Source: Micromonospora echinospora (GTDB lineage: Bacteria; Actinomycetota; Actinomycetes; Mycobacteriales; Micromonosporaceae). From it: DNA of 64,000 nucleotides. Within the stretch, counting starts at the first letter, position 1. The number at the start of each line of letters is the position of its first letter. Position numbers and translations under genes: made by a program. The notes under the pieces are model-generated. The model was not told the origin of the DNA, did no database searches, and was given only the letters and a program-made list of their open reading frames with translations. Shown in pieces: positions 49,764-63,552 of this stretch. Where the stretch lies: contig NZ_LT607413.1 in NCBI RefSeq assembly GCF_900091495.1, positions 124,001 through 188,000 on the forward strand. The letters run 5' to 3'.

Positions 49764-50816
49764 TCAGGGGGTCACCAGGTAGTTCCAGGAACTCGGGCCG
49801 GGGGGCGTGGGGATCAGGGCGTGGTCGGCACCGTCCCGCGACTCGGCGATCACCCGCATCTCCACCTCGTGCCGGCTGGGGACCGACCCGGGTAGCCGGA
49901 GCAGGACGTTCGAGCGGATCCGGTCCTCTCCCTGGTTCCAGCGCAGGGTGTTCGAGGGCAGGTGGCAGACGGTGATCGTGACGCCGATCCGCGCGGCGAA
50001 GCGGGTCAGCTCGGACCGCCAGGACCGGCCGCCCGCCCCTGGGGAGTCCGCGACGATCAGCAGGTGGCCGGCCTGCTGGCTGGACTCCGCCCACCAGCCG
50101 CAGACGGTGGCCAGCGCCACCGCCCAGGTGTCCCGGTCGACCGGCTGGTCGGTCCAGTCGCCGTCGTCGTCGGCGGCCGTGCCCGTGTCCCCCGCCCCGG
50201 TGGCGGTGGACACCGCTGCGGTCCCGCCGGCCGTCGTCGTCTGTGTCCGACGGCGCAGACTGAGCACGATCACGGGTTGTCCGGCGAGCATGCACCGTTG
50301 CACGTGTTCGTTGACCCGGTGGAACTGGGCGTCCCGGTCGAGTCGCTGGCCGGCGAGCAGCGGACGGGAGCTGGTCGACAGCCGGAACCCGGCCTCCCGC
50401 AGCAGCCGACTGACCGACCAGGCCGAGACCCGGTGCCCCAGGCCGGCCAGTTCCTCGGCGAGCCGCCGGGTGGAGCGGGTGGTCCACTGGAGCACCGGGC
50501 GCGGCTGGTGGCGAGGTTCCATCAGCCCGAGCAGGTCGGTCATGAGTCCGGGATCGGTCTCGGTGAGCCGCTTGCGTCCGCCGCCGGGGCGCCGCACGCG
50601 TGGGGGGCGTGCTTCCGGCGACTCAAGCTCCTCGATCCCCTTCGAGACGGTGCTCGGATGCACCCCGGCGGCGAGCGCGATCCGGCTGATCCCACCCCGT
50701 CCGAGCGACCGGGCCCGAGCGGCCAGCACCAACCGGCGCTGCCGCTCGTCAAGATGCGGTTCGAGCATTCGGAACTCTTCGGCAAAACCCTTTACGCCAT
50801 CCCCGTTCATCCCCAT
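49764..50816 (-). CDS. ISAzo13-like transposase, catalytically incomplete
   Basis: 350 residues. An N-terminal helix-turn-helix (GISRIALAAGVHPSTVSKGIEEL) and RRPGGGRKRLTETDP match ISAzo13 transposases, followed by RSTRRLAEEL and VSAWSVSRLLREAGF. In the DDE domain the usual ISVDTKKKE is replaced by IVLSLRRRT, losing the first Asp; LIVADSPGAGG keeps the second Asp and RWNQGEDR keeps the Glu. A 35-residue Thr/Gly/Asp-rich insert lies between. No flanking terminal repeats were seen, so this looks like an immobile or domesticated copy. Next to the biosynthetic cluster boundary. Confidence 0.75.
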   Translation of the reverse strand: MGMNGDGVKGFAEEFRMLEPHLDERQRRLVLAARARSLGRGGISRIALAAGVHPSTVSKGIEELESPEARPPRVRRPGGGRKRLTETDPGLMTDLLGLMEPRHQPRPVLQWTTRSTRRLAEELAGLGHRVSAWSVSRLLREAGFRLSTSSRPLLAGQRLDRDAQFHRVNEHVQRCMLAGQPVIVLSLRRRTQTTTAGGTAAVSTATGAGDTGTAADDDGDWTDQPVDRDTWAVALATVCGWWAESSQQAGHLLIVADSPGAGGRSWRSELTRFAARIGVTITVCHLPSNTLRWNQGEDRIRSNVLLRLPGSVPSRHEVEMRVIAESRDGADHALIPTPPGPSSWNYLVTP

Positions 50817-51306
50817 GACTTGACGAGTATACGCATCTAAAACCGCCTGACGAGATCGCTTGTGGTGAATTTCTACACAGAAACCCTTCCATTCTCACCG
50901 ACGCGTGCGCGCATCGGCGTACGACTGGACCCCATCGACGGGTCTCGACGGTAACCACAGTGGACGGATCGCGCCGGCACCCCCTGGCCCACTGCCTTCA
51001 CCAGGCAAGAAGGCGCACGCCCCCTGCCCTCCCCTCACCCACGGGCCGGGCGGAACCCGACCGGACCCACCGCCCGCAGCTCCCTCTCGCCACGTAGTTA
51101 TTTCCTTGCGAAGCGCAACTTTCGACCCATCGGCCACCCGACTCGAAACGCGCTACCTGCTGCTGCGGCGAGCCCGGGTCAGCATGTGGAATCAAAGTTG
51201 ACGGCGCGAGGAAATAGGTATTTGCCGGGCACGGGAAAGTCGTGCTACCTCATTGGATCTGCGCGGCGCGAACTCGGGGGAACACAAGAGCCGGTTGGAG
51301 GCGTCA
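50817..51306. other. Intergenic region upstream of the NRPS operon
   Basis: 490 bases without a gene, locally A/T-richer than the rest of the window near 50,820-50,900 and 51,090-51,240. It must carry the NRPS promoter. Contains the inverted-repeat element 51099-51216; nothing else recognised. Confidence 0.6.
51099..51216. repeat. 118-bp element bounded by imperfect 23-bp inverted repeats
   Basis: The left end reads TATTTCCTTGCG (51099) followed by GCAACTTT; the right end is its complement with GGAAATA and CAAAGTTG (51193-51216). About 18 of 23 positions pair, separated by 70 bases. It could be a miniature mobile element or a regulator's paired binding sites; no target duplication is evident. 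Confidence 0.45.
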
Positions 51307-54300
51307 GTGTTGTTCGACCACGACAGACCGGACTGGCCGCTGCTGGGCGCCCAGTCCGGGATCTGGTACGCCGAGTCGCTGGACCCCACCGGGGCATCCT
51401 GGAGCATCACCGACCGGGTCGACATCCACGGTCCGGTCGACGCCGCCGTCATGACCGCCGCCCACCACCGGGTCGAACGCGACTGCGAGGCGCTGCGCCT
51501 GCGGTTCGCGGTCACCGCCGCCGGGCCCGTGCAGTACGTCGACCCGGACGCCTCCTCCCCGCTGCACCTGGTCGACGTCGGCGCGGAGAGCGACCCGGAG
51601 GCGGCGGCCGACGCCTGGATGGCCGCCGACATGGCCGCCCCGGTCGACCGGCTCGGCAGCGGGCTCTGCACCACCGCGCTGATCCGGCTGGCACCGGAGC
51701 ACTTCGTGCTCTACCGCCGGGTGCACCACCTGATGGTCGACGGCTGGAGTCTCGCCCAGCTGCACCGGCGGACCGCGGCGACGTACACCGCCCTGGTGAC
51801 CGGCGAGGAACCGCCGGCACCGCCCCCGCCGCTGCGGATCCTCGGCGACGGCGAAGCCGCGTACCTCGCCTCGAACCGGTTGGAGCGGGACCGGCGGCAC
51901 TGGCTGGAGCGGCTGGCGGACCGGCCGGAGCCCACCCGGCTCGCCGGACGGCACGACCAGCGCGGCGGGACGGTGATCCGTCGCCGGGCCCACCTCGGCG
52001 TCGCCCGGACCGAACGGATGCGGACCGCCGCCGAGCGGCTCGGGGTCGGCTGGTCGGAGTTCGCCGTCGGGGTCGCGGCGGCCTACGTCGGACGGATGTC
52101 CGGCAGCAGCGACGTCCTGCTCGGGCTCCCGGTCACCGGCCGGATGAGCCGCGCGGAGCGCGACGTGCCCGGCATGACCACGAACGCGATGCCGCTGCGG
52201 GTCCGGATGCCGGCCGGCACCAGCCTGGCCGACCTCCTCACCGGCGTGGGCGCGGAACTGCGGGCCGGCCTGCTGCACAGCCGCTACCCCGCCGCGATGC
52301 TCGGTCGCGACCTCGGCCGGACCGGGCAGGGCCGCCCCTTCTGGGGCGCGGTGGTCAACGTCATGGGCTCGACCGCCCCGCTGCACTTCGCCGGCCACCC
52401 GGCCATGGTGCGCACCCTCTCGCTGCCGGACGTCGACGACGTCTCCCTCGTCTTCTTCCAACTGCCCGACGGGGACACCGAACTGCTCCTCGACGCCGAC
52501 TCCGTCGCCCACCCGCCCGCCGCGCTCGACGCGCACCTGCGGCGGTTCCTCCTCTTCCTGGACGCGGCGACGTCGGCGCAGCCCGGCACCGCCGTGGACG
52601 ACCTGCCCCTGGTCGACGCCGAGGAACGGGAGCGCCTCCTCGGCTGGGGCCGGGGCCCGACCCGGGACATCCCGCCGGTCGGCGTGCACCAGCTCGTCGA
52701 ACGGTGGGCGGAACGGACCCCGGACGCGCCCGCCCTGGACGACGACGGCACGCCGGTGAGCTTCGGTGAGCTGGACCGGCGGGCCAACCGGCTGGCCCGG
52801 CACCTGGTCGACCGGGGCGTCGGTCCGGGCCAGGTGGTGGCGTTCGCGCTGCCCCGGTCCGCCACGCTGGTCACCGCCGCGCTGGCGGTGCTGAAGTCCG
52901 GGGCGGCCTTCCTCTCCCTCGACCCCGCCTACCCGCTCGCCCGGTTGTCGTTCATGGTCGCCGACGCGGAGCCGAGCCTGCTCCTGCTGTCCGGCGAGAC
53001 CGCGGCGCTCGGCGACCACCTGCCGGTGCCGCGGCTGCTCCTCGACGACCCGGAGCTGACCGGACGACTGGCCGCCCTCGACCCTCGCCCGCTGTCCGAC
53101 CGGGAACGGACCCTGCCCACCTCACCCTGGCAGCCGGCCTACCTGATCTACACCTCCGGCTCGACCGGCACTCCGAAGGGCGTGGTGGTGCGCCACCGGG
53201 GCGTGGTCAACCTGACCGCGGCGATGGTGGACCGGCTCGGCTCCGGGCCGGGCACCCGGACGCTCCAGTTCGCCTCCGCCAGCTTCGACGCCTTCGTCGG
53301 CGAGATGACGCAGTCGGTGCTGAACGGCGGCACCCTCGTCCTCGCCCCGGCCGACCGGTTGACGCCCGGTCCCGAGCTGGTGCGGCTGATCCGGGAACGC
53401 GGCGTCAACGACCTCGTCCTCGCCCCGTCCGTGCTCGACGTGCTCTCCCCGCAGGACCTTCCCCCGGACACCACCGTGTCGATCGTCGGGGAGGCGTCCG
53501 CGCCGACGGTGGTCGAACGGTTCGCGCCGGTCTGCCGGCTGATCAACGGGTACGGGCCGACCGAGGCGACCATCTCGACCGCGATGAGCGGTCGACTCAC
53601 CCCGGACCGGGCCGCCGCCCCGCCGATCGGCACCCCGCTGCGCAACGTCCGGGTCTACCTGCTCGACGCGCGGCGGCGGCTGGTGCCCACCGGCACCGTC
53701 GGCGAACTCCACATCGGTGGCGCCGGGGTGTCGCTGGGTTACCGGGGCAACCGGGCACTCACCGAGGAACGCTTCCTGCCGGACCCGTTCACCGACGACG
53801 GCGAGGCGCGGATGTACCGCAGCGGCGACCTGGCCCGGTGGACCGCCGACGGTGAGTTGGTCTTCGTCGGACGCGACGACGACCAGGTGAAGATCCGTGG
53901 TTTCCGGATCGAGCTGGGCGAGGTCGAGGCCGCGCTGGTCCGGCAGCCCGGGGTGGTCCGGGCCGCGGCCACGGTCCGCGACGACGGCACCGGCGGTCGG
54001 CACCTCGTCGGGTACGTGGTGCCGGCCCCGGGGAGCACGGTCGAGGCGGCCCGGATCCGGGCCGGGCTGGCCGAGGCGCTCCCCGCCCACCTGGTGCCCG
54101 GGATCGTCGTGCCGGTCGAGGACCTGCCCCGCAACGCCAGCGGCAAGCTCGACCGGGCCGCCCTGCCCGACCCGTTCGCCGCGTCGACCAGCCGGCCGGG
54201 CGCGACCGGCGTCGGTCCGGCCGGCCGGACCGACGCGGAGGAGGTGCTGGCCGCGCTCTTCGCCGAGCTGCTGGGCGTGCCGACGGTCGGCGCCGACGAG

Positions 54301-55332
54301 AACTTCTTCGACCTCGGTGGACACTCGCTCTCCGCCACCCGCCTGCTGGGCCGGGCCCGGTCCCTGCTCGACGTCCGCCTGTCGGTGCGGGACCTGTTCC
54401 GGCACCCGACCGTGTCCGCGCTGGCCGCCCGGATCGGTCCCCCCTCGGTGGCCGCCTCCGGTCCGGCCGTCGCCGTGCCGCTGCGGCGCACCGGCAGTCG
54501 CCCGCCGCTGTTCTGCCTGCCGCTGCCCGACGGCCGGAGCTGGCCCTGGCTGCGCCTGGTCGCCCAGTTGCCCGCCGAGGTCCCCGGGTACGGCCTCCAG
54601 GGCGGCGTCACCGGGTCGACCGGCTTCGAGGAGTTGGTCGACGCGTACGTGGCCCGGATCCGCGAGGTCCGGCCCGAGGGTCCGTACCACCTGCTCGGCT
54701 ACGGGACCGGCGGCTACCTGGCGTACCAGGTGGCGGTGGCGTTGCAGGCGGCCGGTGACCGGGTCGGGCTGCTGGCCCTGCTGGAGAGCTACCCGCCGGA
54801 CGAGACGCATCCCGCGCCACCGCCGACCGACCGGGAGGCGCTGCTCGGCGTCCTCGACCTGTACGGCGTGCCCCGACCCGGGTCGGTCACCCCGGACGCC
54901 GCCACCGTGGCCGGTCTGCTGCGGGAGCGGGGTGGCGGGCTGACCGGCGTCGACGAGCCGACCGTACGCGACCAGGCCGACGCCCTCGCCCGGCTCGGCC
55001 ACCTGGCGCACGAGTTCACGCCCGGCCGGTTCGTCGGGGATCCGCTGGTCCTCGCCACCCGCGCGGACGGGTCGGGGCACCCGCCGGTCGGGCCGGACTG
55101 GGGCAAGTACGTGACGGGTCGGGTTCGCGAGCACGTGCTCGACGTCGACGGCCACGATCCGCTGGCCCCCGGGTCGGTGACCGCTCTCGCCGCCGCGCTC
55201 GTCGCGGCCCTGGACACCGGCGACGACGCGACCGGCCCGGCACCGGCGGGCGCCGGAGCGGAGGCGCCACCCGACACCGTGGCCACCGAGCGACCGCAGG
55301 AGGAGACGGGGACCCGTGAAACCCACCGATGA
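51307..55332 (+). CDS. Single-module non-ribosomal peptide synthetase (C-A-T-TE)
   Basis: 1341 residues. Condensation domain about 1-430 with active motif HHLMVDG (140-146); adenylation about 460-960 with YTSGSTGTPKG at 615, NGYGPTE and GDLARW; thiolation with phosphopantetheine Ser1007 (DLGGHSL); thioesterase from about 1060. The TE motif is GYGTGG: the nucleophile Ser is Gly1133, although a His (VDGHDPL) remains. Specificity residues read roughly D-A-G-L-S-V-G-I-S, which I cannot match to a known substrate. GTG 51307 is fixed by GGAGG 5 bases upstream. An N-terminal C domain in a one-module enzyme implies that an ACP-bound acyl group is the donor. Confidence 0.9.
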   Translation: MLFDHDRPDWPLLGAQSGIWYAESLDPTGASWSITDRVDIHGPVDAAVMTAAHHRVERDCEALRLRFAVTAAGPVQYVDPDASSPLHLVDVGAESDPEAAADAWMAADMAAPVDRLGSGLCTTALIRLAPEHFVLYRRVHHLMVDGWSLAQLHRRTAATYTALVTGEEPPAPPPPLRILGDGEAAYLASNRLERDRRHWLERLADRPEPTRLAGRHDQRGGTVIRRRAHLGVARTERMRTAAERLGVGWSEFAVGVAAAYVGRMSGSSDVLLGLPVTGRMSRAERDVPGMTTNAMPLRVRMPAGTSLADLLTGVGAELRAGLLHSRYPAAMLGRDLGRTGQGRPFWGAVVNVMGSTAPLHFAGHPAMVRTLSLPDVDDVSLVFFQLPDGDTELLLDADSVAHPPAALDAHLRRFLLFLDAATSAQPGTAVDDLPLVDAEERERLLGWGRGPTRDIPPVGVHQLVERWAERTPDAPALDDDGTPVSFGELDRRANRLARHLVDRGVGPGQVVAFALPRSATLVTAALAVLKSGAAFLSLDPAYPLARLSFMVADAEPSLLLLSGETAALGDHLPVPRLLLDDPELTGRLAALDPRPLSDRERTLPTSPWQPAYLIYTSGSTGTPKGVVVRHRGVVNLTAAMVDRLGSGPGTRTLQFASASFDAFVGEMTQSVLNGGTLVLAPADRLTPGPELVRLIRERGVNDLVLAPSVLDVLSPQDLPPDTTVSIVGEASAPTVVERFAPVCRLINGYGPTEATISTAMSGRLTPDRAAAPPIGTPLRNVRVYLLDARRRLVPTGTVGELHIGGAGVSLGYRGNRALTEERFLPDPFTDDGEARMYRSGDLARWTADGELVFVGRDDDQVKIRGFRIELGEVEAALVRQPGVVRAAATVRDDGTGGRHLVGYVVPAPGSTVEAARIRAGLAEALPAHLVPGIVVPVEDLPRNASGKLDRAALPDPFAASTSRPGATGVGPAGRTDAEEVLAALFAELLGVPTVGADENFFDLGGHSLSATRLLGRARSLLDVRLSVRDLFRHPTVSALAARIGPPSVAASGPAVAVPLRRTGSRPPLFCLPLPDGRSWPWLRLVAQLPAEVPGYGLQGGVTGSTGFEELVDAYVARIREVRPEGPYHLLGYGTGGYLAYQVAVALQAAGDRVGLLALLESYPPDETHPAPPPTDREALLGVLDLYGVPRPGSVTPDAATVAGLLRERGGGLTGVDEPTVRDQADALARLGHLAHEFTPGRFVGDPLVLATRADGSGHPPVGPDWGKYVTGRVREHVLDVDGHDPLAPGSVTALAAALVAALDTGDDATGPAPAGAGAEAPPDTVATERPQEETGTRETHR

Positions 55333-56254
55333 GGCCACCGCGCGCGCCACCCGGGCCGACGTCCGCAGCGCCGCCCGACATCTGCGCACCGAGGTCGACG
55401 ACCGGTCCTTCGCGTCGAAACTGGCGCTCTGGGCCCTGCTGACCGTTGCCGGCGGGGTGCTGGCGACCCGCCCCGAGACCGCCCTGCGGGTGCTGGGCGT
55501 GGTGGTGCTGGGCTGCATGTTCGCCCACGCCGCCGAGTTGCAGCACCAGACGCTGCACGGGTTGGGGTTCCGCCACGCAAGGACGAACCGGCTGGTCGGC
55601 GTCCTGCTGGGACTGCCGATGCTGATCTCGTTCTCCGCGTACCGGGCGACCCACCTGCGGCACCACCGCGACCTGGGCACCCCGGACAACCGGGAGTTCT
55701 TCGACTACGGCGACCAGTACGGCACCGACCGACCCCGGTCCCGGGTGCGCACCGCCTGGGCCTGGACGGTGCGCTTCACCATGCTGCACCACTACGCGAT
55801 GTTCCTGTTCGACGCCGCACGGGCGCTGCGCGGCGCGGACCATCCCGGGGAGACGGCCACCGTCTCCCGCCGGATCCGCGCCGAACACCGGCTGATCCTC
55901 GCCGTGCTCGTCGCCGCGTCCCTCGGCTCGGTGCTGCTCGGCCAGGCCATCGTGGTGTGGTGCTGGCTGGCCCCGCTGCTGCTGGTCGCCGGGCCGGTGC
56001 ACGCGCTGGTCGAGCTGCCGGAACACTTCCGCTGCGCCACGCTGGACCGCGACCCCTTCGCCAACACCCGCACGATCCGGTCGAACCGGTTGATGACGTG
56101 GTTCACCAACGGCAACAACTTCCACGTCGAGCACCACCTGATGCCGAACCTGCCGATCGAACGCCTGCCCGAGCTGCACCAGCAGGTGCGGCACCAGCTG
56201 CGCCACTTCCACCCCGGATACGTGGACTTCTTCCGGACGTTGGTGCGCCGGTGA
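55316..56254 (+). CDS. Membrane fatty-acid desaturase/hydroxylase family protein
   Basis: 312 residues with three His boxes: FAHAAELQHQTLH, HLRHHRD and NFHVEHH, which bind a di-iron centre, and four membrane segments. Family members desaturate or hydroxylate acyl chains or small molecules. GTG 55316 lies inside the NRPS 3' end with AGGAGGAG upstream. The location suggests oxidation of the acyl group or of an enzyme-bound intermediate. Confidence 0.85.
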   Translation: MKPTDEATARATRADVRSAARHLRTEVDDRSFASKLALWALLTVAGGVLATRPETALRVLGVVVLGCMFAHAAELQHQTLHGLGFRHARTNRLVGVLLGLPMLISFSAYRATHLRHHRDLGTPDNREFFDYGDQYGTDRPRSRVRTAWAWTVRFTMLHHYAMFLFDAARALRGADHPGETATVSRRIRAEHRLILAVLVAASLGSVLLGQAIVVWCWLAPLLLVAGPVHALVELPEHFRCATLDRDPFANTRTIRSNRLMTWFTNGNNFHVEHHLMPNLPIERLPELHQQVRHQLRHFHPGYVDFFRTLVRR

Positions 56255-56895
56255 GCGCCCCGTCGATCGCCGGGGTCACGTTCCGGCTCGCCGAGTCGGC
56301 GGCGGACCGGGCGGCGGTGCTGCGGCTGCGCGACGCGGTCTACGTCCAGGACCAGGCACGACTGCACGACGCCACCGACACGGAGGAGACCTTCGACCGC
56401 TTCGACCCGTACGCCCACTACATCCTCGCGCTCGACGACGGGGAGCCGGTCGGCACCGTCAAGGTCATCCCCGACCAGGAGGCCGGGCTGCCCTGCGAGG
56501 ACGTGGTCGACCTGAGCGCGCTGCGGCCGGGCAACCGGCTGGTCGAGTTCGGCCACCTGATGACCCTGCCGGCGATCCGCAGCCGCTCGGTCGGGCTCGC
56601 GCTGATGCGCGAGGCGCTGGTGCACAGCGTCCGGCGCTTCGGCGCGACCCACGTCGTCGGGGACTTCTTCGTCGACGAGAACTCCGGCCAACTGCGGGAC
56701 TTCTACCTGGAGATCGGGTTCGTGGCGCTCGGGGAGCCGTACCTCGACGAGCGGTTCGCCGGTGGGCCGCTGAGCCTGGTGGCCTACCTGGACGTGCCGG
56801 ACGCGGTGGCCCGGTCCCGCACGCCGGAGGGGCGGCGCAGTCGCCTGTTGCAGTACTTCTTCGCCGACTACCACGCGTACGCCAGTGCCCGGTGA
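56251..56895 (+). CDS. GNAT / N-acyl-amino-acid-synthase-like acyltransferase
   Basis: 214 residues. VLRLRDAVYVQDQ near the N-terminus, LDDGEPVGTVKVIPD, and LVEFGHLMTLPAIRSRSVGLALMREAL form the acyl-CoA/acyl-ACP binding core shared by GNATs, LuxI-type synthases and FeeM-type N-acyl-tyrosine synthases. GTG start overlaps the desaturase stop (GTGA). It could join an acyl-ACP to an amine, perhaps tyrosine made by the hydroxylase at 62358. Substrates are inference. Confidence 0.75.
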   Translation: MSAPSIAGVTFRLAESAADRAAVLRLRDAVYVQDQARLHDATDTEETFDRFDPYAHYILALDDGEPVGTVKVIPDQEAGLPCEDVVDLSALRPGNRLVEFGHLMTLPAIRSRSVGLALMREALVHSVRRFGATHVVGDFFVDENSGQLRDFYLEIGFVALGEPYLDERFAGGPLSLVAYLDVPDAVARSRTPEGRRSRLLQYFFADYHAYASAR

Positions 56896-56917
56896 CCCCG
56901 GGCGGGAGGAGACGAGG

Positions 56918-58645
56918 GTGCGAACACGTCGTCAGGAGCTGGCCGAGGCGAAGGCGGCCCACAACCATCCGACCTACTCGACGATGTCCTTCGTCATGGG
57001 CTGCGGCGTGCAGGGTCCCGGCTCCGGCGCGCACGTGACCGACGGCGACGGCCGGGACCTGCTCGCCCTCTTCGACCAGTACGGCAACCAGTCGTTCGGG
57101 TACTCGCACGAGCGGATCCTGGCCGCCGTCGCCGAGCAGTTGGCGTCCGGCCGGATGAACAGCACGAAGATCCTCTTCGAGGAGGAGCAGATCCGGCTGA
57201 CCGCCCGGTTGGCCGAGCTGACCGGCGGCCGGCTCCCGTACGCCTACCTGGCGAACGGGGGCGGGGAGAGCATCGACAACGCGTTGAAGCTGGCCCGCGC
57301 CGCCACCGGCCGGAGCACGTTCGTCAGCGCCCTCGACTGCTTCCACGGCAAGACCTTCGCCGCGCTGAGCGCCGCCAACCGGCCCGAGCACGCCGCCCTG
57401 TACCGCCCGTTCCTGGAGCGGTTCCGGCAGGTGCCCTTCGACGACCTGGCCGCCGTCGACCGGGCGGTGGACGACGACACCGCGGCGGTGCTGCTGGAGC
57501 CGGTGCAGGCCGAGGGGGGTGTCATCGTCCCCGACCCGGACTACCTGGCCGGGGTCCGCCGGATCTGCACCGAGCGGGGGGCCCTGCTGATCCTCGACGA
57601 GATGCAGACCGCCTTCGGCCGGTGCGGTCCCTTCTTCGCCTTCGACCGGTTCGGCGTCACCCCCGACCTGGTCTGCGTGGGCAAGGCGTTCGGCGGCGGG
57701 GTGGTCCCGCTGTCGGCGGTGCTCGGCACCGAGGCGGTGTGGGCGAGCCTGCGGGCGCTGCCGTCCACCTTCGGGTCCAGTCTGGGCGGCAACCCGCTCT
57801 GCTGCCGGGTGGGACTGGCCGCCATCGAGATCGCCACCGAGGAGTCGTTCGGCCGGACGGTGGCCGCGCACGCGGAGACGCTCGGCGTCCGGCTGCCCGC
57901 CCTGGTGGCCCGCTTCCCCCGGCTGCTCGCCGCGCACCGGGGCATCGGCATGATGCACGGCCTGGAGTTCCACGACGAGATGCTCGGCGGGATGGTGCTG
58001 GCCCGGCTGCTGCGGCACGGCGTGACCTCGACCTACTCGCTCTACCACAGCCGGGTGCTGCGGGTGCAGCCGCCGATGGTCATCACGGCGACCGACCTGG
58101 CGTACGGGCTGGACGTGCTGGAACGGGTGCTGGCCGAGGTGGACGCCCGGCAGGACGACCCGGCAGGACGACCGGCGGTGCCCTGCTCGCCCGTGGTCCG
58201 GACGGCGGTGCTGCCGGTGCCCCACGCGGAACTGCGCGAGCTGCTGCACCGGCGGCCCCGCCTGCTGGACCCGTTCGCGCTCGACCCGGCCGGAGTGACT
58301 GACGACCAGCTCGACCCGGCCGGTCCGACCGACGACGGGCTGGAGCCGGAATTCGGCGGGACGCTCGGACACGACCGGGTGGTCTGGGCCGACCGGGTCA
58401 CCCGCACGCCGGACGGGGTGAGCGCCTCGGCCGTCCCGGACTGGCTCTGGCGGCGGCTGGAGCGCACCGTCCGGGTCCGGGCGGTCGACGGCGACGACCG
58501 ACGCAGCGCGGTGGAGGTCCGGATCGACTGGGACACCGGGTCCGGGCCGTACGAGCCGCTGCTGGCCGGGCAGCTCGGGCCGTTCGTCAGCGACCGGCTC
58601 GACGCCCTGCTCGCCCGACTGGCCGACGAGATGGCGAGGACGTGA
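56918..58645 (+). CDS. Class III PLP aminotransferase with unknown C-terminal domain
   Basis: 575 residues. Residues 1-410 are a class III (ornithine/4-aminobutyrate type) aminotransferase: YLANGGGESIDNALKLAR, LLILDEMQTAFGR and Schiff-base Lys256 in CVGKAFGGG. Residues 410-575 are extra: VRTAVLPVPHAELRELLHRR then a beta-rich segment ending LARLADEMART, which I do not recognise. GGAGGA lies about 8 bases before GTG 56918. The end overlaps the ligase's spare GTG. It would aminate an aldehyde or ketone, or shift an amino group, in the pathway. Confidence 0.82.
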   Translation: MRTRRQELAEAKAAHNHPTYSTMSFVMGCGVQGPGSGAHVTDGDGRDLLALFDQYGNQSFGYSHERILAAVAEQLASGRMNSTKILFEEEQIRLTARLAELTGGRLPYAYLANGGGESIDNALKLARAATGRSTFVSALDCFHGKTFAALSAANRPEHAALYRPFLERFRQVPFDDLAAVDRAVDDDTAAVLLEPVQAEGGVIVPDPDYLAGVRRICTERGALLILDEMQTAFGRCGPFFAFDRFGVTPDLVCVGKAFGGGVVPLSAVLGTEAVWASLRALPSTFGSSLGGNPLCCRVGLAAIEIATEESFGRTVAAHAETLGVRLPALVARFPRLLAAHRGIGMMHGLEFHDEMLGGMVLARLLRHGVTSTYSLYHSRVLRVQPPMVITATDLAYGLDVLERVLAEVDARQDDPAGRPAVPCSPVVRTAVLPVPHAELRELLHRRPRLLDPFALDPAGVTDDQLDPAGPTDDGLEPEFGGTLGHDRVVWADRVTRTPDGVSASAVPDWLWRRLERTVRVRAVDGDDRRSAVEVRIDWDTGSGPYEPLLAGQLGPFVSDRLDALLARLADEMART

Positions 58646-58647
58646 TC

Positions 58648-60165
58648 ATGAACCTGGCAGACCTGACCGCCCGGTACCGCGACCGGCGTACCGCGCGGAT
58701 CGTGGAGATCGACGCCGCCGGGCAGCGGCGGGAGATGACCCACGCCGAGCTGGCCGGGGCCGTCGACGAGCGGGTCGGCCGGCTGCGCGCCGCCGGTGTC
58801 GGCCCCGGCGACGTGGTCGGCATCCGGGCCGGCAACAGCATCGACTGGGTGGTGTGGGACCTCGCGGTGCTGGCGCGCGGGGCGGTGCTCCAGGCGTTCG
58901 GCGACGAGACCACCGTCGACGCCGGGTTCGCCGACCGGCACGGGCTGGCCCTGCTGGTCGACGGCGACCGGGCGTACCCGACCGGCCGCCGGCCGCACCC
59001 GGTCGGCGAGATCCCGCCGGACCTGCACAGCCTGGTCTACTCCTCGGGCACCTCCGGCACGTTGAAGGGGTTGCGGATCAGCCGGGCCGGCACCGAGTAC
59101 GTGATCAACCGGTTCGTCGACGCCTTCGGGATCACTGCCGCCGACCGGCACCTGATCTTCCTGCCGCTGGCCAACTACCAGCAGCGGCTCTCCGTCTACT
59201 GCTGCCTGTGGGTGGGGGCCGACCTGGTGCTCGCCCCGTACCAGCGGGTCTTCGCGGCGATCCGGCAGGAGCGGCCGACCTTCGTCATCGCCCCGCCGGT
59301 CTTCTACGACGCGGCCCGGCAACTGCACGCGCGGGGCGCGGCCGGCACGCCGCTGCCCGAGTTCCTGGGCGGCCGGATGCGCTTCATGATCACCGGCATG
59401 GCCCCGATCTCCCGGGCCACCCTGGACGCGTTCTGGGCCGGCGGGGTCCCGCTGCTGGAGGCGTACGGGATGACCGAGAGCGGCATGATCGCCTGGAACA
59501 CCGCCGACGCGCACCGGGTCGGTACGGTCGGCCGCCTCATCGACCCGGACGCGGTGGAGTTCCTCCCCGACGGTGAGCTGCTGATCCGGCGACCGGCCCC
59601 GCTGAGCCTCGGCTACTTCGACGTGCCGGCGGAGGTGGCCGGGGAGACCTTCCGTCCGGACGGCACGATCGTCACCGGCGACTACGGACGGCTGGACGCG
59701 GACGGCTTCCTCACCCTGGTCGGCCGGAAGAAGGACGTGATCACCCTCGGCAACGGCCGGAAGGTGCACCCGGCCGAGATCGAGGCCCACTTCACCGGCG
59801 TGCCCGGGGTGGCGGACCTGATCGTGGTTTCGACCCGCTCCCACCGGCTCGGCGCGATCGTCACCCCGTCCGCCGACACCCCCGAGCAGCGGAGGGCCGT
59901 ACGGGACGGCGTCGAGCGGGTCAACGCCGGCCTGGCCAGCCACGAACGCCTCGCCGCCGTGGTCTTCAGCGCCACGCCGCTGCGCGGCGACCCCCGGTTC
60001 CTGACCGCCAACCTGAAGCTCAGCCGCACCGCGGCGGCGGACTGGTTCGCCGACCACGTCGGCGCCGACGACCCGGCCGACCCCGGCGCCTCGGCTCAAG
60101 GTCCCGGCGCCGCCGGCCCGGCCCGCGTCGCGGTCGACGCGCCCGCCCAGGCGGGCTCGGCATGA
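58648..60165 (+). CDS. Acyl-AMP ligase (ANL superfamily)
   Basis: 505 residues. The adenylate-forming core has LVYSSGTSGTLKGL, EAYGMTESGMIAW and GDYGRLDADGFLTLVGRKKDVI, and the A10-type lysine in TANLKLSR. It probably activates a carboxylic acid and loads the ACP two genes downstream; a fatty or aryl acid is possible. AGGA is 7 bases from ATG 58648 and only one base from GTG 58642, which decides the start. It ends in ATGA with the next gene. Confidence 0.85.
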   Translation: MNLADLTARYRDRRTARIVEIDAAGQRREMTHAELAGAVDERVGRLRAAGVGPGDVVGIRAGNSIDWVVWDLAVLARGAVLQAFGDETTVDAGFADRHGLALLVDGDRAYPTGRRPHPVGEIPPDLHSLVYSSGTSGTLKGLRISRAGTEYVINRFVDAFGITAADRHLIFLPLANYQQRLSVYCCLWVGADLVLAPYQRVFAAIRQERPTFVIAPPVFYDAARQLHARGAAGTPLPEFLGGRMRFMITGMAPISRATLDAFWAGGVPLLEAYGMTESGMIAWNTADAHRVGTVGRLIDPDAVEFLPDGELLIRRPAPLSLGYFDVPAEVAGETFRPDGTIVTGDYGRLDADGFLTLVGRKKDVITLGNGRKVHPAEIEAHFTGVPGVADLIVVSTRSHRLGAIVTPSADTPEQRRAVRDGVERVNAGLASHERLAAVVFSATPLRGDPRFLTANLKLSRTAAADWFADHVGADDPADPGASAQGPGAAGPARVAVDAPAQAGSA

Positions 60166-61106
60166 TCGTCGACGGGCACGTGGTGCTGGCGAGCGACCGG
60201 GTCATCCCCCGCGAGTACCTGGAGGAGCAGGCCGCGAACGTCCACCACCGGCTGGCCGCGCACGGCCAGGACGTCGACCGGGCGGCGATCACCGAGCGGC
60301 TGCTGGCCATCCACTCCGACCACGACGGTGACCGCCTGGTCGCCGAGCTGGACGCCGCCGGGGTGGCCGGGGCGTTCCTGGTGGCCGCCGACTTCTCCCA
60401 CGTCTCGCCCCGGGCCACCCCGCCGGACGAGTTGGCCCGCCTGCACGACCGGGTCTGCCGCCGGCACCCGGGCCGGTTCCGGGTGTTCTGGGGGGCGGAC
60501 CCGCGCGCCGGGGCGGCCGGGCCGGAGGAGTTCGAGCGGACGGTGACCGAGTACGGCTTCGCCGGGCTGAAGCTCTACCCGCCGGCCGGCTACTCCCCCA
60601 GCGACCGGCGGCTCTACCCGTACTACGAGATCTGCGCGGCGCGCGGGCTGCCGGTGCTGACCCACACCGGGCCGGGCTGGGCCCCGCTGGACTTCACCTT
60701 CGGCCCGCCGCTGCTGGTCGACCAGGCGGCCCGGGACTTCCCACAGGTGAACTTCGTCCTCGGCCACGGCGGGGTGACCCACGTGGAGGAGGCCTCGTAC
60801 CTGTGCGCCCACCGCCCCAACGTCCACCTGGACATCAGCCAGTTCCCGTCGATGCTCTCCGCCGACGGCTGGGTGGCACACCTGAACCAACTGTTCCGCA
60901 GCGGCATCAACCACAAGATCGTGTTCGGCACCTGCTGGCCGTCGTACCGGATGTCGACGACCCTGCCGGCGGTGCTCGCCGCCTTCACCTCGGACGGCGT
61001 CTTCTCCGGCGTCCGTCCCTCCCACCAAAGAATGATCATGGGAGAGACCCTCGTCCGCCTGGCCGGCGACCCGGTCGCCGCCACCACCCCGGGAGACCAC
61101 CAGTGA
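60162..61106 (+). CDS. Amidohydrolase-2 family protein, probable pseudoenzyme
   Basis: 314 residues, the same length as the protein at 61351-62295 and closely similar over residues 120-310. Metal-site positions: DGHVV instead of DGHxH (second ligand at residue 8 is Val), THTGPG and LGHGGVTH kept, FGTCWP instead of FGTDWP (catalytic Asp replaced by Cys258). A typical amidohydrolase reaction is therefore unlikely. It may be a structural partner of the intact paralogue, or a carrier-protein docking subunit. Coupled by ATGA upstream and GTGA downstream. Confidence 0.85.
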   Translation: MIVDGHVVLASDRVIPREYLEEQAANVHHRLAAHGQDVDRAAITERLLAIHSDHDGDRLVAELDAAGVAGAFLVAADFSHVSPRATPPDELARLHDRVCRRHPGRFRVFWGADPRAGAAGPEEFERTVTEYGFAGLKLYPPAGYSPSDRRLYPYYEICAARGLPVLTHTGPGWAPLDFTFGPPLLVDQAARDFPQVNFVLGHGGVTHVEEASYLCAHRPNVHLDISQFPSMLSADGWVAHLNQLFRSGINHKIVFGTCWPSYRMSTTLPAVLAAFTSDGVFSGVRPSHQRMIMGETLVRLAGDPVAATTPGDHQ

Positions 61107-61354
61107 GCGTCGACGTCGCCGCGTTGCAGAAGGAAGCCATCGAGTGGGTCCGGGAGTGGAACGAGGACGACCTCCCGGTCGAGCTGGACGCCGACACCCC
61201 CCTGCTGGCCAAGGGGCTGCTCGACTCGATGGGCATGGTCGCCTTCGTGTCCTTCCTGGAGGAGCGGTTCGACCTGCGGTTCGACTTCACCAGCTTCGTG
61301 CCGGGACCGAACGCGTCGATCCGCACCCTGCTCGACCACTGCCTCGGACGATGA
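61103..61354 (+). CDS. Acyl carrier protein
   Basis: 83 residues. DTPLLAKGLLDSMGMVAFVSFLEERF gives the phosphopantetheine attachment Ser42 in LDSMG and the following helix. The acidic composition is typical for a carrier. It lies between two amidohydrolase paralogues with 4-bp overlaps on each side, so these three proteins probably work in equal amounts. Likely loaded by the AMP ligase and donor to the NRPS C domain or GNAT. Confidence 0.87.
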   Translation: MSVDVAALQKEAIEWVREWNEDDLPVELDADTPLLAKGLLDSMGMVAFVSFLEERFDLRFDFTSFVPGPNASIRTLLDHCLGR

Positions 61355-62295
61355 TCCACGACGGCCACTGCCACGTCGCCTCGACCGACTTCATCCCCCG
61401 GGCCTTCCTCACCGACGTCGCGGCGGGGATGCACCGGGGGCTGAGCGCGGTCACCACCGCACCGCCGCTGTCCACCCTGGTCGAGGGGTACGTGGCCCAG
61501 CACCAGGACCACCATGCCGACCGGCTGGTGGCCGAGATGGACGCCGCGGGCGTGGCCACGGCGGTGCTGCTCGTCCCGGACTTCGGGTTGGTGATGTCGA
61601 CCCCGCTGTCCCTGGCGGAGATGGCCCGCCGGCACCACGGGATCCGGACCCGGCACCCCGGCCGGTTCCGGGTCTACCTGGGAGCGGACCCGCGCCGGGG
61701 CGAGGCGGGGGCGCGGGAGTTCGCCGACCTGGTGGACCGGTACGGCTTCGAGGGGATGAAGCTCTACCCGCCCTGCGGCTACTCACCGTCGGACCGGGCG
61801 CTCTACCCGTACTACGAGGAGTGCCGGGCCCGGTCGATGCCGGTCTTCGTGCACACCGGGCCGACCGGGCGCAGCCTGAGCTTCGGCCCGGCCCACCCGC
61901 TCCTGGTCGACCAGGCGGCCCGGGACTTCCCGGACCTGGTGTTCGTGCTCGGCCACGGCGGGGTCAGCCACGTCGACGTCACCTCGTACCTGGCCCTGCA
62001 CCGGCGCAACGTCTACCTCGACACCGGGGGTTTCGCCGGCTCGCCCGGCACCGGCTGGCCGCAGCGGTTGAACCGGCTGTTCCGCATGGGCGTCAACCAC
62101 AAGATCATTTTTGGTACGGACTGGCCGTTGAACCAGCTCACCGGTGGGCTGCCCCGGCTGCTCGCCGAGGTGTGCGACGGGTCCGAGGTCTTCGCCGGGG
62201 TGTCCCGTGGCGACCGGGCGCTGCTGCTCGGCGGCAACCTGCTGCGGGTGCTCGCGTCGGCCGCCCGGCCGGCGCGGGCCGGGGCGGGACCGTGA
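61351..62295 (+). CDS. Amidohydrolase-2 family metal enzyme (intact site)
   Basis: 314 residues. N-terminal DGHCHV (His6, His8), FVHTGP, VLGHGGVSH and FGTDWP (Asp257) complete the metal/catalytic set of the family, which includes hydrolases and non-oxidative decarboxylases such as ACMSD and resorcylate decarboxylase. GMKLYPPCGYSPSDRALYPYYEECR is shared with the paralogue at 60162. It might hydrolyse or decarboxylate an ACP-bound intermediate. A hairpin follows directly. Confidence 0.87.
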   Translation: MIHDGHCHVASTDFIPRAFLTDVAAGMHRGLSAVTTAPPLSTLVEGYVAQHQDHHADRLVAEMDAAGVATAVLLVPDFGLVMSTPLSLAEMARRHHGIRTRHPGRFRVYLGADPRRGEAGAREFADLVDRYGFEGMKLYPPCGYSPSDRALYPYYEECRARSMPVFVHTGPTGRSLSFGPAHPLLVDQAARDFPDLVFVLGHGGVSHVDVTSYLALHRRNVYLDTGGFAGSPGTGWPQRLNRLFRMGVNHKIIFGTDWPLNQLTGGLPRLLAEVCDGSEVFAGVSRGDRALLLGGNLLRVLASAARPARAGAGP

Positions 62296-62357: not shown

Positions 62358-63242
62358 TCAGGATCCGATCGCCCCGGCGAACTGTCCCCGGACGATCCGG
62401 TCGAGGAACCGGTCGAGGAACTCCTCCAGATGGTCGAAGGAGTCAGCGCAGAAGAGCACGGGCTGGTAGTCCTCCACCCGGTACCGCTGCGCGCCCATCG
62501 TCGCCGCGTCCAGCGGTCGGATCTCCGCCGCCGTCCGGAACTGGTCCAGCTCACCGATCGAGGAGAGCAGGCTCGCCCCGCAGGCGCGCACCTCGCCGTC
62601 CTCGCGGACCAGGCCGTACTCGAGGGTGAACCAGAAGACCCGGGAGAGCACGGAGAGCGCCTCGTGGCTCTCCAGCCGCCGGGCGGCCTCCCCCACCCGC
62701 CGGTAGATCGCCGCGAGCCGGTCGCTGGCCAACGCGCTGCCGTGCCCGACCACCTCGTGGATCATGTCCGGCTCCGGGGAGAACCGGGGCATCGAGCAGT
62801 GCCGGATGTACTGGGTCGCCTGGAACAGCCCGTCGGCGAGCGAGCCGTAGAAGTCGCCCATCTCGACGATGCCCGCGGCCGGCCGGAAGCGGAACCCGGT
62901 CAGCTCGGTCAGGCGCGCCGAGGCCGCCCCGAGCTGCGGCAGCCGGTCGGTGGGCAGGTCGAGCCGGCGCACCCCGTCGAGGAACTCCCGGCAGGCGTAC
63001 CGCTGGTGTCGTTCCCGCAGCTCGGGACCGACGATCCGCCACAGTTCGTGCTCCTCGTCGGTGTACTCCACGTCGGCGACCGGGCCGCCGGGCACGTGGT
63101 CCAGGGCGGCCTTCGCGATCTGCGCGCGGTGCCGCTGGTAGCCCGGGTCGTCCCGGCCCGGGTGTCCGTCGGCGAACACCACGGAGACCGCGCCGTTCTC
63201 GGTACGGATCACCGGCGAGTACAACGTCGCTTCCTTGAACAT
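62358..63242 (-). CDS. Phenylalanine-4-monooxygenase (aromatic amino-acid hydroxylase)
   Basis: 294 residues. Iron ligands are His162 and His167 (MIHEVVGHG) and Glu208 (TLEYGL); SMPRFSPEPDMIHE and YIRHCSMPR are family marks. It hydroxylates L-Phe to L-Tyr with tetrahydropterin. GGGGAGGAAG lies about 7 bases before ATG 63242. In actinomycetes such genes sometimes sit in biosynthetic clusters as precursor suppliers; here it converges on the cluster operon and diverges from the P450. Confidence 0.88.
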   Translation of the reverse strand: MFKEATLYSPVIRTENGAVSVVFADGHPGRDDPGYQRHRAQIAKAALDHVPGGPVADVEYTDEEHELWRIVGPELRERHQRYACREFLDGVRRLDLPTDRLPQLGAASARLTELTGFRFRPAAGIVEMGDFYGSLADGLFQATQYIRHCSMPRFSPEPDMIHEVVGHGSALASDRLAAIYRRVGEAARRLESHEALSVLSRVFWFTLEYGLVREDGEVRACGASLLSSIGELDQFRTAAEIRPLDAATMGAQRYRVEDYQPVLFCADSFDHLEEFLDRFLDRIVRGQFAGAIGS

Positions 63243-63552
63243 CGTCGCTTCCTCCCCCACGCCCGGCGGACGCGCGTCGAGGGACCGACGTGGTTCCACA
63301 CGCACCCGGCCGGTCCCGCGTTGCCATCGGATCGGGCGGCGGCATTTCCGCACCAGCCCGGCACGACCTCGTCCGCACAATTACGGGTGGTCACATGAGC
63401 CGAGCCTAACCCACAAATCCATATTTTCGAACGCCAGGAAATAAGTGATGGAAAACGCTCCGGAATGAGCTGGGAACCGGCGGCGTGCGACGCGCGCTGC
63501 CCATTTACGGCACTACCGCCACGGCCATTCCGCGTCTCGATCGGAGGGATCC
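63243..63552. other. Divergent intergenic region with an A/T-rich box
   Basis: 310 bases between phenylalanine hydroxylase and the P450. The stretch 63410-63470 is A/T-rich and contains GGAAATAAGT (63437-63446), similar to GGAAATAGGT at the inverted-repeat element upstream of the NRPS. A shared regulator site is possible. No gene seen. Confidence 0.45.

What the first reader, a model, noticed from the sequence alone, without database searches (positions are those of the whole stretch)
60162..62295. Pseudoenzyme/enzyme amidohydrolase pair bracketing an acyl carrier protein
Two 314-residue amidohydrolase-2 paralogues flank an 83-residue ACP with 4-bp overlaps. The first has lost the second N-terminal metal His (DGHVV) and the catalytic Asp (FGTCWP), both kept in the second (DGHCH, FGTDWP). 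Strict equal length, tandem coupling and conservation elsewhere argue against decay. A heteromeric enzyme in which the degenerate copy docks the ACP or allosterically controls the intact copy would be new for this family.
Basis: partly seen in the sequence, partly recalled or inferred. Interest (0 to 1): 0.85.

Follow-up and report, generated by a model that had tools for sequence, protein, structure and literature searches.

The report
Conserved metal-less amidohydrolase partner gene
Beside an intact metal-dependent amidohydrolase and a small carrier protein, a biosynthetic gene cluster of this Micromonospora-like bacterium keeps a sister copy that has lost key metal-binding residues; the sister copy is preserved in many related bacteria, so it probably works as a partner of the intact enzyme rather than being a decaying gene.

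Summary
In detail: AmhA (60162-61106), ACP (61103-61354) and AmhB (61351-62295) overlap by 4 bp; AmhA lacks the second metal His and the catalytic Asp, AmhB keeps both. It is not strain decay. In a 216-sequence tree AmhA sits in one clade (support 1.0) of 87, none keeping both ligands, while all 127 other sequences with a readable N-terminus keep both; Lys137, His168 and His202 are invariant in all 216. AmhA is under purifying selection (dN/dS 0.18-0.34). The order AmhA-ACP-AmhB holds in 14 of 14 loci, inside a GNAT/aminotransferase/AMP-ligase/AmhA/ACP/AmhB cassette. Relatives outside the pair have one intact enzyme in a ligase/ACP/amidohydrolase operon, so AmhA looks like a duplicate that lost its metal site. 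Best reading: a non-metal auxiliary subunit for AmhB acting on an acyl-ACP; interaction and reaction are untested. "New for this family" fails: AibH1H2 is a published heterotetramer of two such proteins, one non-catalytic (PMC7782822). Equal length is coincidence. New points: near-complete loss of the metal set, and the ACP setting.

The parts
60162..61106 (+). AmhA: PF04909 paralogue without a complete metal site (DGHVV, FGTCWP), 314 aa
   Evidence: clade statistics; model mean pLDDT 94.2
61103..61354 (+). ACP, 83 aa, GTG start, Ser of LLDSM; the Ser is kept in 14 of 14 loci
   Evidence: (PF00550, 21.5 bits, just over the 20.8 cut-off)
61351..62295 (+). AmhB: PF04909 protein with a complete ligand set (DGHCH, K137, H168, H202, D257), 314 aa
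   Evidence: model mean pLDDT 93.6
58642..60165 (+). AMP-forming ligase (ANL), presumed to load the ACP; overlaps AmhA by 4 bp
56885..58645 (+). class III aminotransferase with a C-terminal extension of about 160 aa; nearest solved relative putrescine aminotransferase
56251..56895 (+). GNAT acyltransferase, FeeM-like (PF21926); that FeeM-type enzymes use acyl-ACP is recalled
   Evidence: (start)
55316..56254 (+). membrane fatty-acid-desaturase/hydroxylase family protein
   Evidence: weak similarity to GntB, far below its cut-off
51253..55332 (+). NRPS, C-A-T-TE, first gene of the operon (TTG start as listed, uncertain)
62358..63380 (-). biopterin-dependent aromatic amino acid hydroxylase; flank shared with some relatives only

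Best explanation
AmhA and AmhB are the auxiliary and catalytic members of a duplicated, ACP-dedicated PF04909 enzyme in an NRPS-associated acyl-building cassette. Shown: related ligase/ACP/amidohydrolase operons exist with one intact enzyme; in the paired lineage a copy lying between ligase and ACP lacks the second His and, in nearly all members, the Asp, yet remains under purifying selection with Lys137, His168 and His202 and its pocket loops retained, upstream of the ACP and the intact copy in every locus read. Inferred: the ligase loads an acid on the ACP; AmhB carries out the metal-dependent step on the acyl-ACP (ligand pattern HxH/H/H/D as in the ACMSD-type decarboxylases of the family, recalled); AmhA associates with AmhB as a non-metal subunit, AibH1-like, shaping AmhB's active site or holding the ACP or its acyl-pantetheine arm in its retained pocket; the FeeM-like GNAT then moves the finished acyl group to an amine.
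Against: No interaction evidence of any kind was obtained here. In AibH1 the metal site is kept and described as structural (mutating it made the complex insoluble), whereas AmhA lost it, so the parallel is loose; sequence profiles give no sign that AmhA/AmhB are orthologues of AibH1/AibH2. Strict retention of His202 and Lys137 is more than a pure scaffold needs. Conserved gene order is equally expected for two successive enzymes. Six of 87 clade members keep the Asp.
Confidence: 0.5

Rival explanations
1. AmhA is itself an enzyme: a metal-independent catalyst using the retained His202/Lys137/His168 (with Asn8/Ser258 or Cys258) on the ACP-bound substrate, acting before or after AmhB.
For: Lys137, His168 and His202 invariant in 87 of 87; pocket loops under strong constraint; Ala215 of AmhB (53 of 53) is Cys215 in AmhA (71 of 71); PMC10811679 states that some characterised PF04909 enzymes lack a cofactor.
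Against: Position 258 is Cys, Ser, Gly, Ala or Asp, so no fixed nucleophile there; the Asp is lost in 81 of 87; His6 is Gln in 34 of 87. Pocket conservation may be structural.
Confidence: 0.27
2. AmhA is a free-standing ACP or acyl-pantetheine-binding protein (substrate shuttle or gatekeeper) that does not form a stable complex with AmhB.
For: Gene sits directly before the ACP in 14 of 14 loci; retained pocket.
Against: No ACP-docking patch was tested; AmhA and AmhB keep 39-50% identity in the nine loci compared and the same fold, so a shared interface is at least as likely.
Confidence: 0.13
3. AmhA still binds one metal through a changed set (His6, His168, Cys258) and is an active variant metalloenzyme.
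For: 18 of 87 members, including the window's, combine His6 with Cys258 and 6 more keep Asp258.
Against: 32 of 87 pair Gln6 with Cys258 and 27 pair His6/Asn8 with Ser258, so no common metal set survives across the clade.
Confidence: 0.08
4. AmhA is a decaying pseudogene.
For: Loss of canonical ligands.
Against: Clade-wide loss, purifying selection, open reading frame to the expected end in 14 of 14 loci.
Confidence: 0.02

Closest known systems
AibH1H2 (2-aminoisobutyrate hydroxylase, Rhodococcus wratislaviensis)
   Same: Two neighbouring PF04909 paralogues of which one is catalytic and one is not; the gene table lists aibH1 (non-catalytic) before aibH2.
   Different: AibH1 keeps a mononuclear metal and AibH2 is a dinuclear Mn/Fe or Fe2 oxygenase working with a ferredoxin and a reductase; no ACP appears in the passages seen. 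AmhA has lost the metal set, AmhB has the hydrolase/decarboxylase-type set, and no AibH chain is among the PDB sequences matched by either profile (at E 0.001; AmhB profile to E 10).
ACMSD/gamma-resorcylate-type PF04909 decarboxylases and LigJ hydratase
   Different: Act on free small acids (recalled); AmhB is tied to an ACP operon and has an unknown substrate.
BB4693 (PDB 3irs) and CAC3332 (PDB 3cjp), uncharacterised
   Same: Closest solved structures by sequence and fold for both proteins; BB4693 also lacks the beta-8 Asp (FGTAYP).
   Different: No function known from any call here; their gene neighbourhoods were not examined.
Butirosin-type ACP-borne acyl assembly (BtrI/BtrK/BtrH, recalled)
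   Same: Single-Amh loci carry a ligase, an ACP, a PLP decarboxylase (L022, L024) and a weak BtrH_N match (L025, 22.2 bits, below the 29.7 cut-off).
   Different: Analogy only; no pathway was established.

Membership tests
PF04909 amidohydrolase-related | Profile match over Pfam gathering score | tested here: met
   AmhA 115.1, AmhB 124.4 bits, cut-off 26.4
PF04909 amidohydrolase-related | TIM-barrel fold of solved members | tested here: met
Mononuclear-metal PF04909 enzymes (ACMSD-like) | HxH, His on beta-5, His on beta-6, Asp on beta-8 (pattern recalled) | tested here: met
   AmhB: H6, H8, H168, H202, D257; all 129 non-AmhA sequences keep H168, H202 and Asp, 127 of 127 readable keep HxH. Metal binding itself not tested
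Mononuclear-metal PF04909 enzymes (ACMSD-like) | Same set in AmhA | tested here: not met
   second His absent in 87 of 87, Asp absent in 81 of 87
AROs (AibH2, PtmU3, SfbO) | Carboxylate on beta-6 and DxxH on beta-8 | tested here: not met
   AmhB has His202 and D257-W-P-L260; ligands of AibH2 from PMC7782822; positions matched by strand order, not by superposition
AROs (AibH2, PtmU3, SfbO) | Rieske or ferredoxin partner gene nearby | tested here: not met
   none among the 10 proteins or the 5 window/L065 proteins; other open frames around were not scanned, and the feature is a discovery criterion rather than a strict definition
AibH1H2-like heteromer | Adjacent catalytic/non-catalytic paralogues | tested here: met
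   (non-catalytic status inferred from ligands only)
AibH1H2-like heteromer | Physical alpha2alpha'2 complex | not testable with these tools
   no complex prediction or experiment available
AibH1H2-like heteromer | Non-catalytic subunit keeps a structural mononuclear metal site | tested here: not met
   against the ligands given
Carrier protein PF00550 | Profile match and phosphopantetheine Ser | tested here: met
   21.5 bits against 20.8; Ser in 14 of 14

The most novel reading that the evidence does not exclude
A dedicated two-subunit amidohydrolase works on acyl-ACP in which one subunit has discarded the metal centre of the superfamily but kept its pocket (Lys137/His168/His202), either to cradle the carrier-bound substrate for its partner or to do a new metal-free reaction on the same carrier; it would be an ACP-dependent branch of PF04909, evolved independently of AibH1H2.
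Probability: 0.4. Interest if true: 0.72.

Novelty: new variant of a known kind. Interest (0 to 1): 0.52.

Why it matters
It gives a natural series (single intact enzyme, duplicated pair, ligand loss from Asn/Ser to Gln/Cys states) for how an enzyme becomes a partner protein, in an operon that can be expressed and tested. It also marks an uncharacterised ACP-dependent building-block cassette shared by NRPS clusters of Micromonospora, Actinoplanes and Streptomyces, found too in Actinospica and a Pseudonocardiales MAG, with a related cassette in a Rahnella strain.

Tried and rejected
ARO reading: fold searches listed SfbO and TruffO, so I asked whether AmhB could be a diiron oxygenase; the ligand pattern and the neighbours scanned do not fit. 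Strain-specific decay: rejected. Strict equal length: coincidence.

Product identification: five literature searches on the cassette and one by producer species named no pathway in their listings; NRPS specificity was not established. No paper on a PF04909 pseudoenzyme pair with an ACP was seen in the listings of searches, in a library that lacks most subscription journals; several of these returned nothing or were cut to the top rows (89: 15 of 1,765). I read part 1 of 3 of PMC10811679, 12 of 22 places found in PMC7782822, 12 of 42 and one further place in PMC10401708, and all 6 places found plus the outline of PMC12141560; other papers were seen as search listings only.

Not informative: scans of sampled genomes found the pair rarely: 3 of 300 genomes of the family including the window's own and one that is the Actinoplanes of L010, and in 394 genomes of the class only the window's own plus one single-Amh locus; 1 of 398 (phylum) and 1 of 14 (genus) around Rahnella, in both cases the starting genome itself. 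Rahnella: GNAT, aminotransferase and a cut-off ligase lie on one contig and a cut-off ACP with AmhB on another; its genome shows one match to the AmhA profile at E 1e-30, the AmhB-like gene, but a contig break lies where AmhA would be, so absence cannot be told. Several deeper intact relatives (for example P0160-P0188) have unknown neighbourhoods. An IQ-TREE run timed out; FastTree was used. Inside the AmhA clade some deep nodes have low support (0.46, 0.09), and although the node joining the clade with the AmhB group has 0.97, the AmhB side itself has 0.16, so the order of duplication is uncertain. NCBIfam and PHROGs gave nothing for AmhA or AmhB.

Rows dropped: the trees excluded proteins under 280 aa and the ACP; one possible pair whose AmhA is a 223-aa fragment (P0075/P0088) was left out, and AmhA sequences without a partner of equal contig length in the listed top 120 were not counted. 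Each homology search listed only its best 120 (of 242, 311 and 1037 hits), so divergent members may be missing. Of 43 loci, all were in the synteny BLAST but only L009-L028 were printed and examined; L027 and L029-L051 are distant amidohydrolases. The A-clade sample holds near-identical sequences (80 of 87 remain at 95%).
Full report
1. What is there. They end an operon that starts with an NRPS (C-A-T-TE, 51253), a membrane desaturase-family protein, a FeeM-like GNAT, a class III aminotransferase with an extra C-terminal region and an AMP-forming ligase. A biopterin-dependent aromatic hydroxylase lies convergently at 62358-63380, followed by a P450 (from 63553), and beyond the window an O-methyltransferase and a second NRPS. 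The genome is a single 7.78 Mb contig, and two of its nine PF04909 matches are this pair. Both proteins model with high confidence as the family's TIM barrel (mean pLDDT 94.2 and 93.6).

2. Is AmhA really without its metal site, and is that old? AmhA keeps Asp4, His6, Lys137, His168 and His202 but has Val8 for His and Cys258 for Asp. Homology searches, each listing its best 120, plus the loci gave 216 sequences for a FastTree tree rooted on the single-Amh type. AmhA falls in one clade of 87 (support 1.0). In it position 8 is never His (Asn 51, Gln 16, Thr 9, Val 4, Met 3, and Asp, Tyr, Ser, Gly 1 each), position 258 is Cys 50, Ser 28, Asp 6, Gly 2, Ala 1, and His6 is Gln in 34. Lys137, His168 and His202 are invariant in all 216. 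All 129 sequences outside the clade keep the Asp, and all 127 with a readable N-terminus keep HxH. Filtering to 95, 90 or 80% identity changes nothing (0 of 80, 0 of 75, 0 of 49 clade members with both). The six clade members with Asp all lack the second His. The first-splitting group of seven and the next of two carry Asn8/Ser258, so the window's Val8/Cys258 looks derived, with the caution that some deep nodes are weakly supported.

3. Is it maintained? In nine pairwise comparisons each, NG86 dN/dS is 0.18-0.34 for AmhA, 0.11-0.45 for AmhB, 0.20-0.41 for the ligase and 0.11-0.60 for the ACP. Column entropy in the loops at the barrel mouth is 0.68 against 1.32 elsewhere in AmhA (71 sequences) and 0.50 against 1.20 in AmhB (53 sequences), with 0 of 5000 random draws as low in either. 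The loop ranges were set by me from the model's strands and include glycines that may be conserved for folding alone.

4. Context in other genomes. A pattern scan of one genome per species and unnamed relatives gave loci from Micromonospora, Actinoplanes, Streptomyces, Actinospica and a Pseudonocardiales MAG. With the window there are 14 paired loci (window, L067, L009-L020); the order AmhA-ACP-AmhB holds in 14 of 14, the ligase precedes in 14 of 14 (cut by the contig end in L019), and GNAT and aminotransferase precede in the 13 whose contig reaches that far (GNAT cut in L020). AmhA/ACP overlap by 4 bp in 11 of 14 and ACP/AmhB in 11 of 14, start codons being my choice. The surrounding NRPS genes differ between genera, so the cassette behaves as a module.

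5. Origin. Loci L022-L026 and L028 carry ligase, ACP and one intact amidohydrolase (DFHCH, FGTDWP) in that order; L058 has the ligase and the same kind of amidohydrolase, its ACP not read. Their other neighbours differ from the pair's: PLP decarboxylase and GMC oxidoreductase in L022 and L024, PhyH dioxygenase and another GNAT in L024, ATP-grasp and MFS proteins in L025. The simplest history is a ligase/ACP/Amh operon, a duplication placing a second copy between ligase and ACP, and loss of that copy's metal site before the present diversity of the paired type.

6. Mechanism. AmhB has the ligand pattern of metal-dependent PF04909 enzymes such as ACMSD (recalled), and the ligase/ACP neighbours make an acyl-ACP its likely substrate; the chemistry is not known. 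For AmhA I favour an auxiliary subunit of AmhB. The direct precedent is AibH1H2: two amidohydrolase-superfamily proteins form a heterotetramer, cells expressing only one of the two made no product, AibH2 holds the dinuclear centre and AibH1 is thought non-catalytic (PMC7782822), and a review notes that the active-site loop of AibH2 lies close to the AibH1 interface (PMC12141560). The main rival is that AmhA is a metal-free enzyme, suggested by the invariant His202 and Lys137; PMC10811679 notes cofactor-less PF04909 enzymes.

7. Known or new. AmhA/AmhB nevertheless do not look like AibH1/AibH2: no AibH chain is among the PDB sequences matched by their profiles (at E 0.001; AmhB to E 10), AmhB lacks the beta-6 carboxylate and DxxH of the oxygenases, and AmhA lacks the metal set that AibH1 retains. 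What appears new, within the literature searched, is a clade-wide metal-less PF04909 protein tied by gene order to an ACP and an intact sister. Verdict: new variant of a known kind, interest 0.52.

Noticed in passing
window 62358-63380 (-): Biopterin-dependent aromatic amino acid hydroxylase (phenylalanine 4-monooxygenase model 263 bits, cut-off 247) beside the NRPS operon; found in the same place in L009, L010, L011, L018 and L067 but not in the other paired loci held (some are cut short), so it belongs to the product of a subset.
   Followed up: partly
window 56885-58645: Class III aminotransferase with a C-terminal region of about 160 aa that no Pfam family covers; the extension aligns in the cassette relatives, including Rahnella.
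   Followed up: partly
L022-L026, L028 (10 kb flanks): A separate, uncharacterised actinomycete cluster: AMP-ligase, ACP, single intact amidohydrolase; with PLP decarboxylase, GMC oxidoreductase, PhyH dioxygenase, GNAT, ATP-grasp and MFS genes as read in parts from L022, L024 and L025.
   Followed up: partly
L021 and L068: Rahnella perminowiae carries GNAT, aminotransferase and a truncated ligase on one contig and a cut ACP, an AmhB-like gene and an NRPS on another: a related cassette in a gammaproteobacterium.
   Followed up: partly
window 49764-50816 (-): Transposase-like gene (DDE_Tnp_ISAZ013) just upstream of the NRPS operon.
   Followed up: no
PDB 3irs (BB4693): The closest solved relative also lacks the beta-8 Asp (FGTAYP), so another PF04909 lineage may have lost its metal site.
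   Followed up: no
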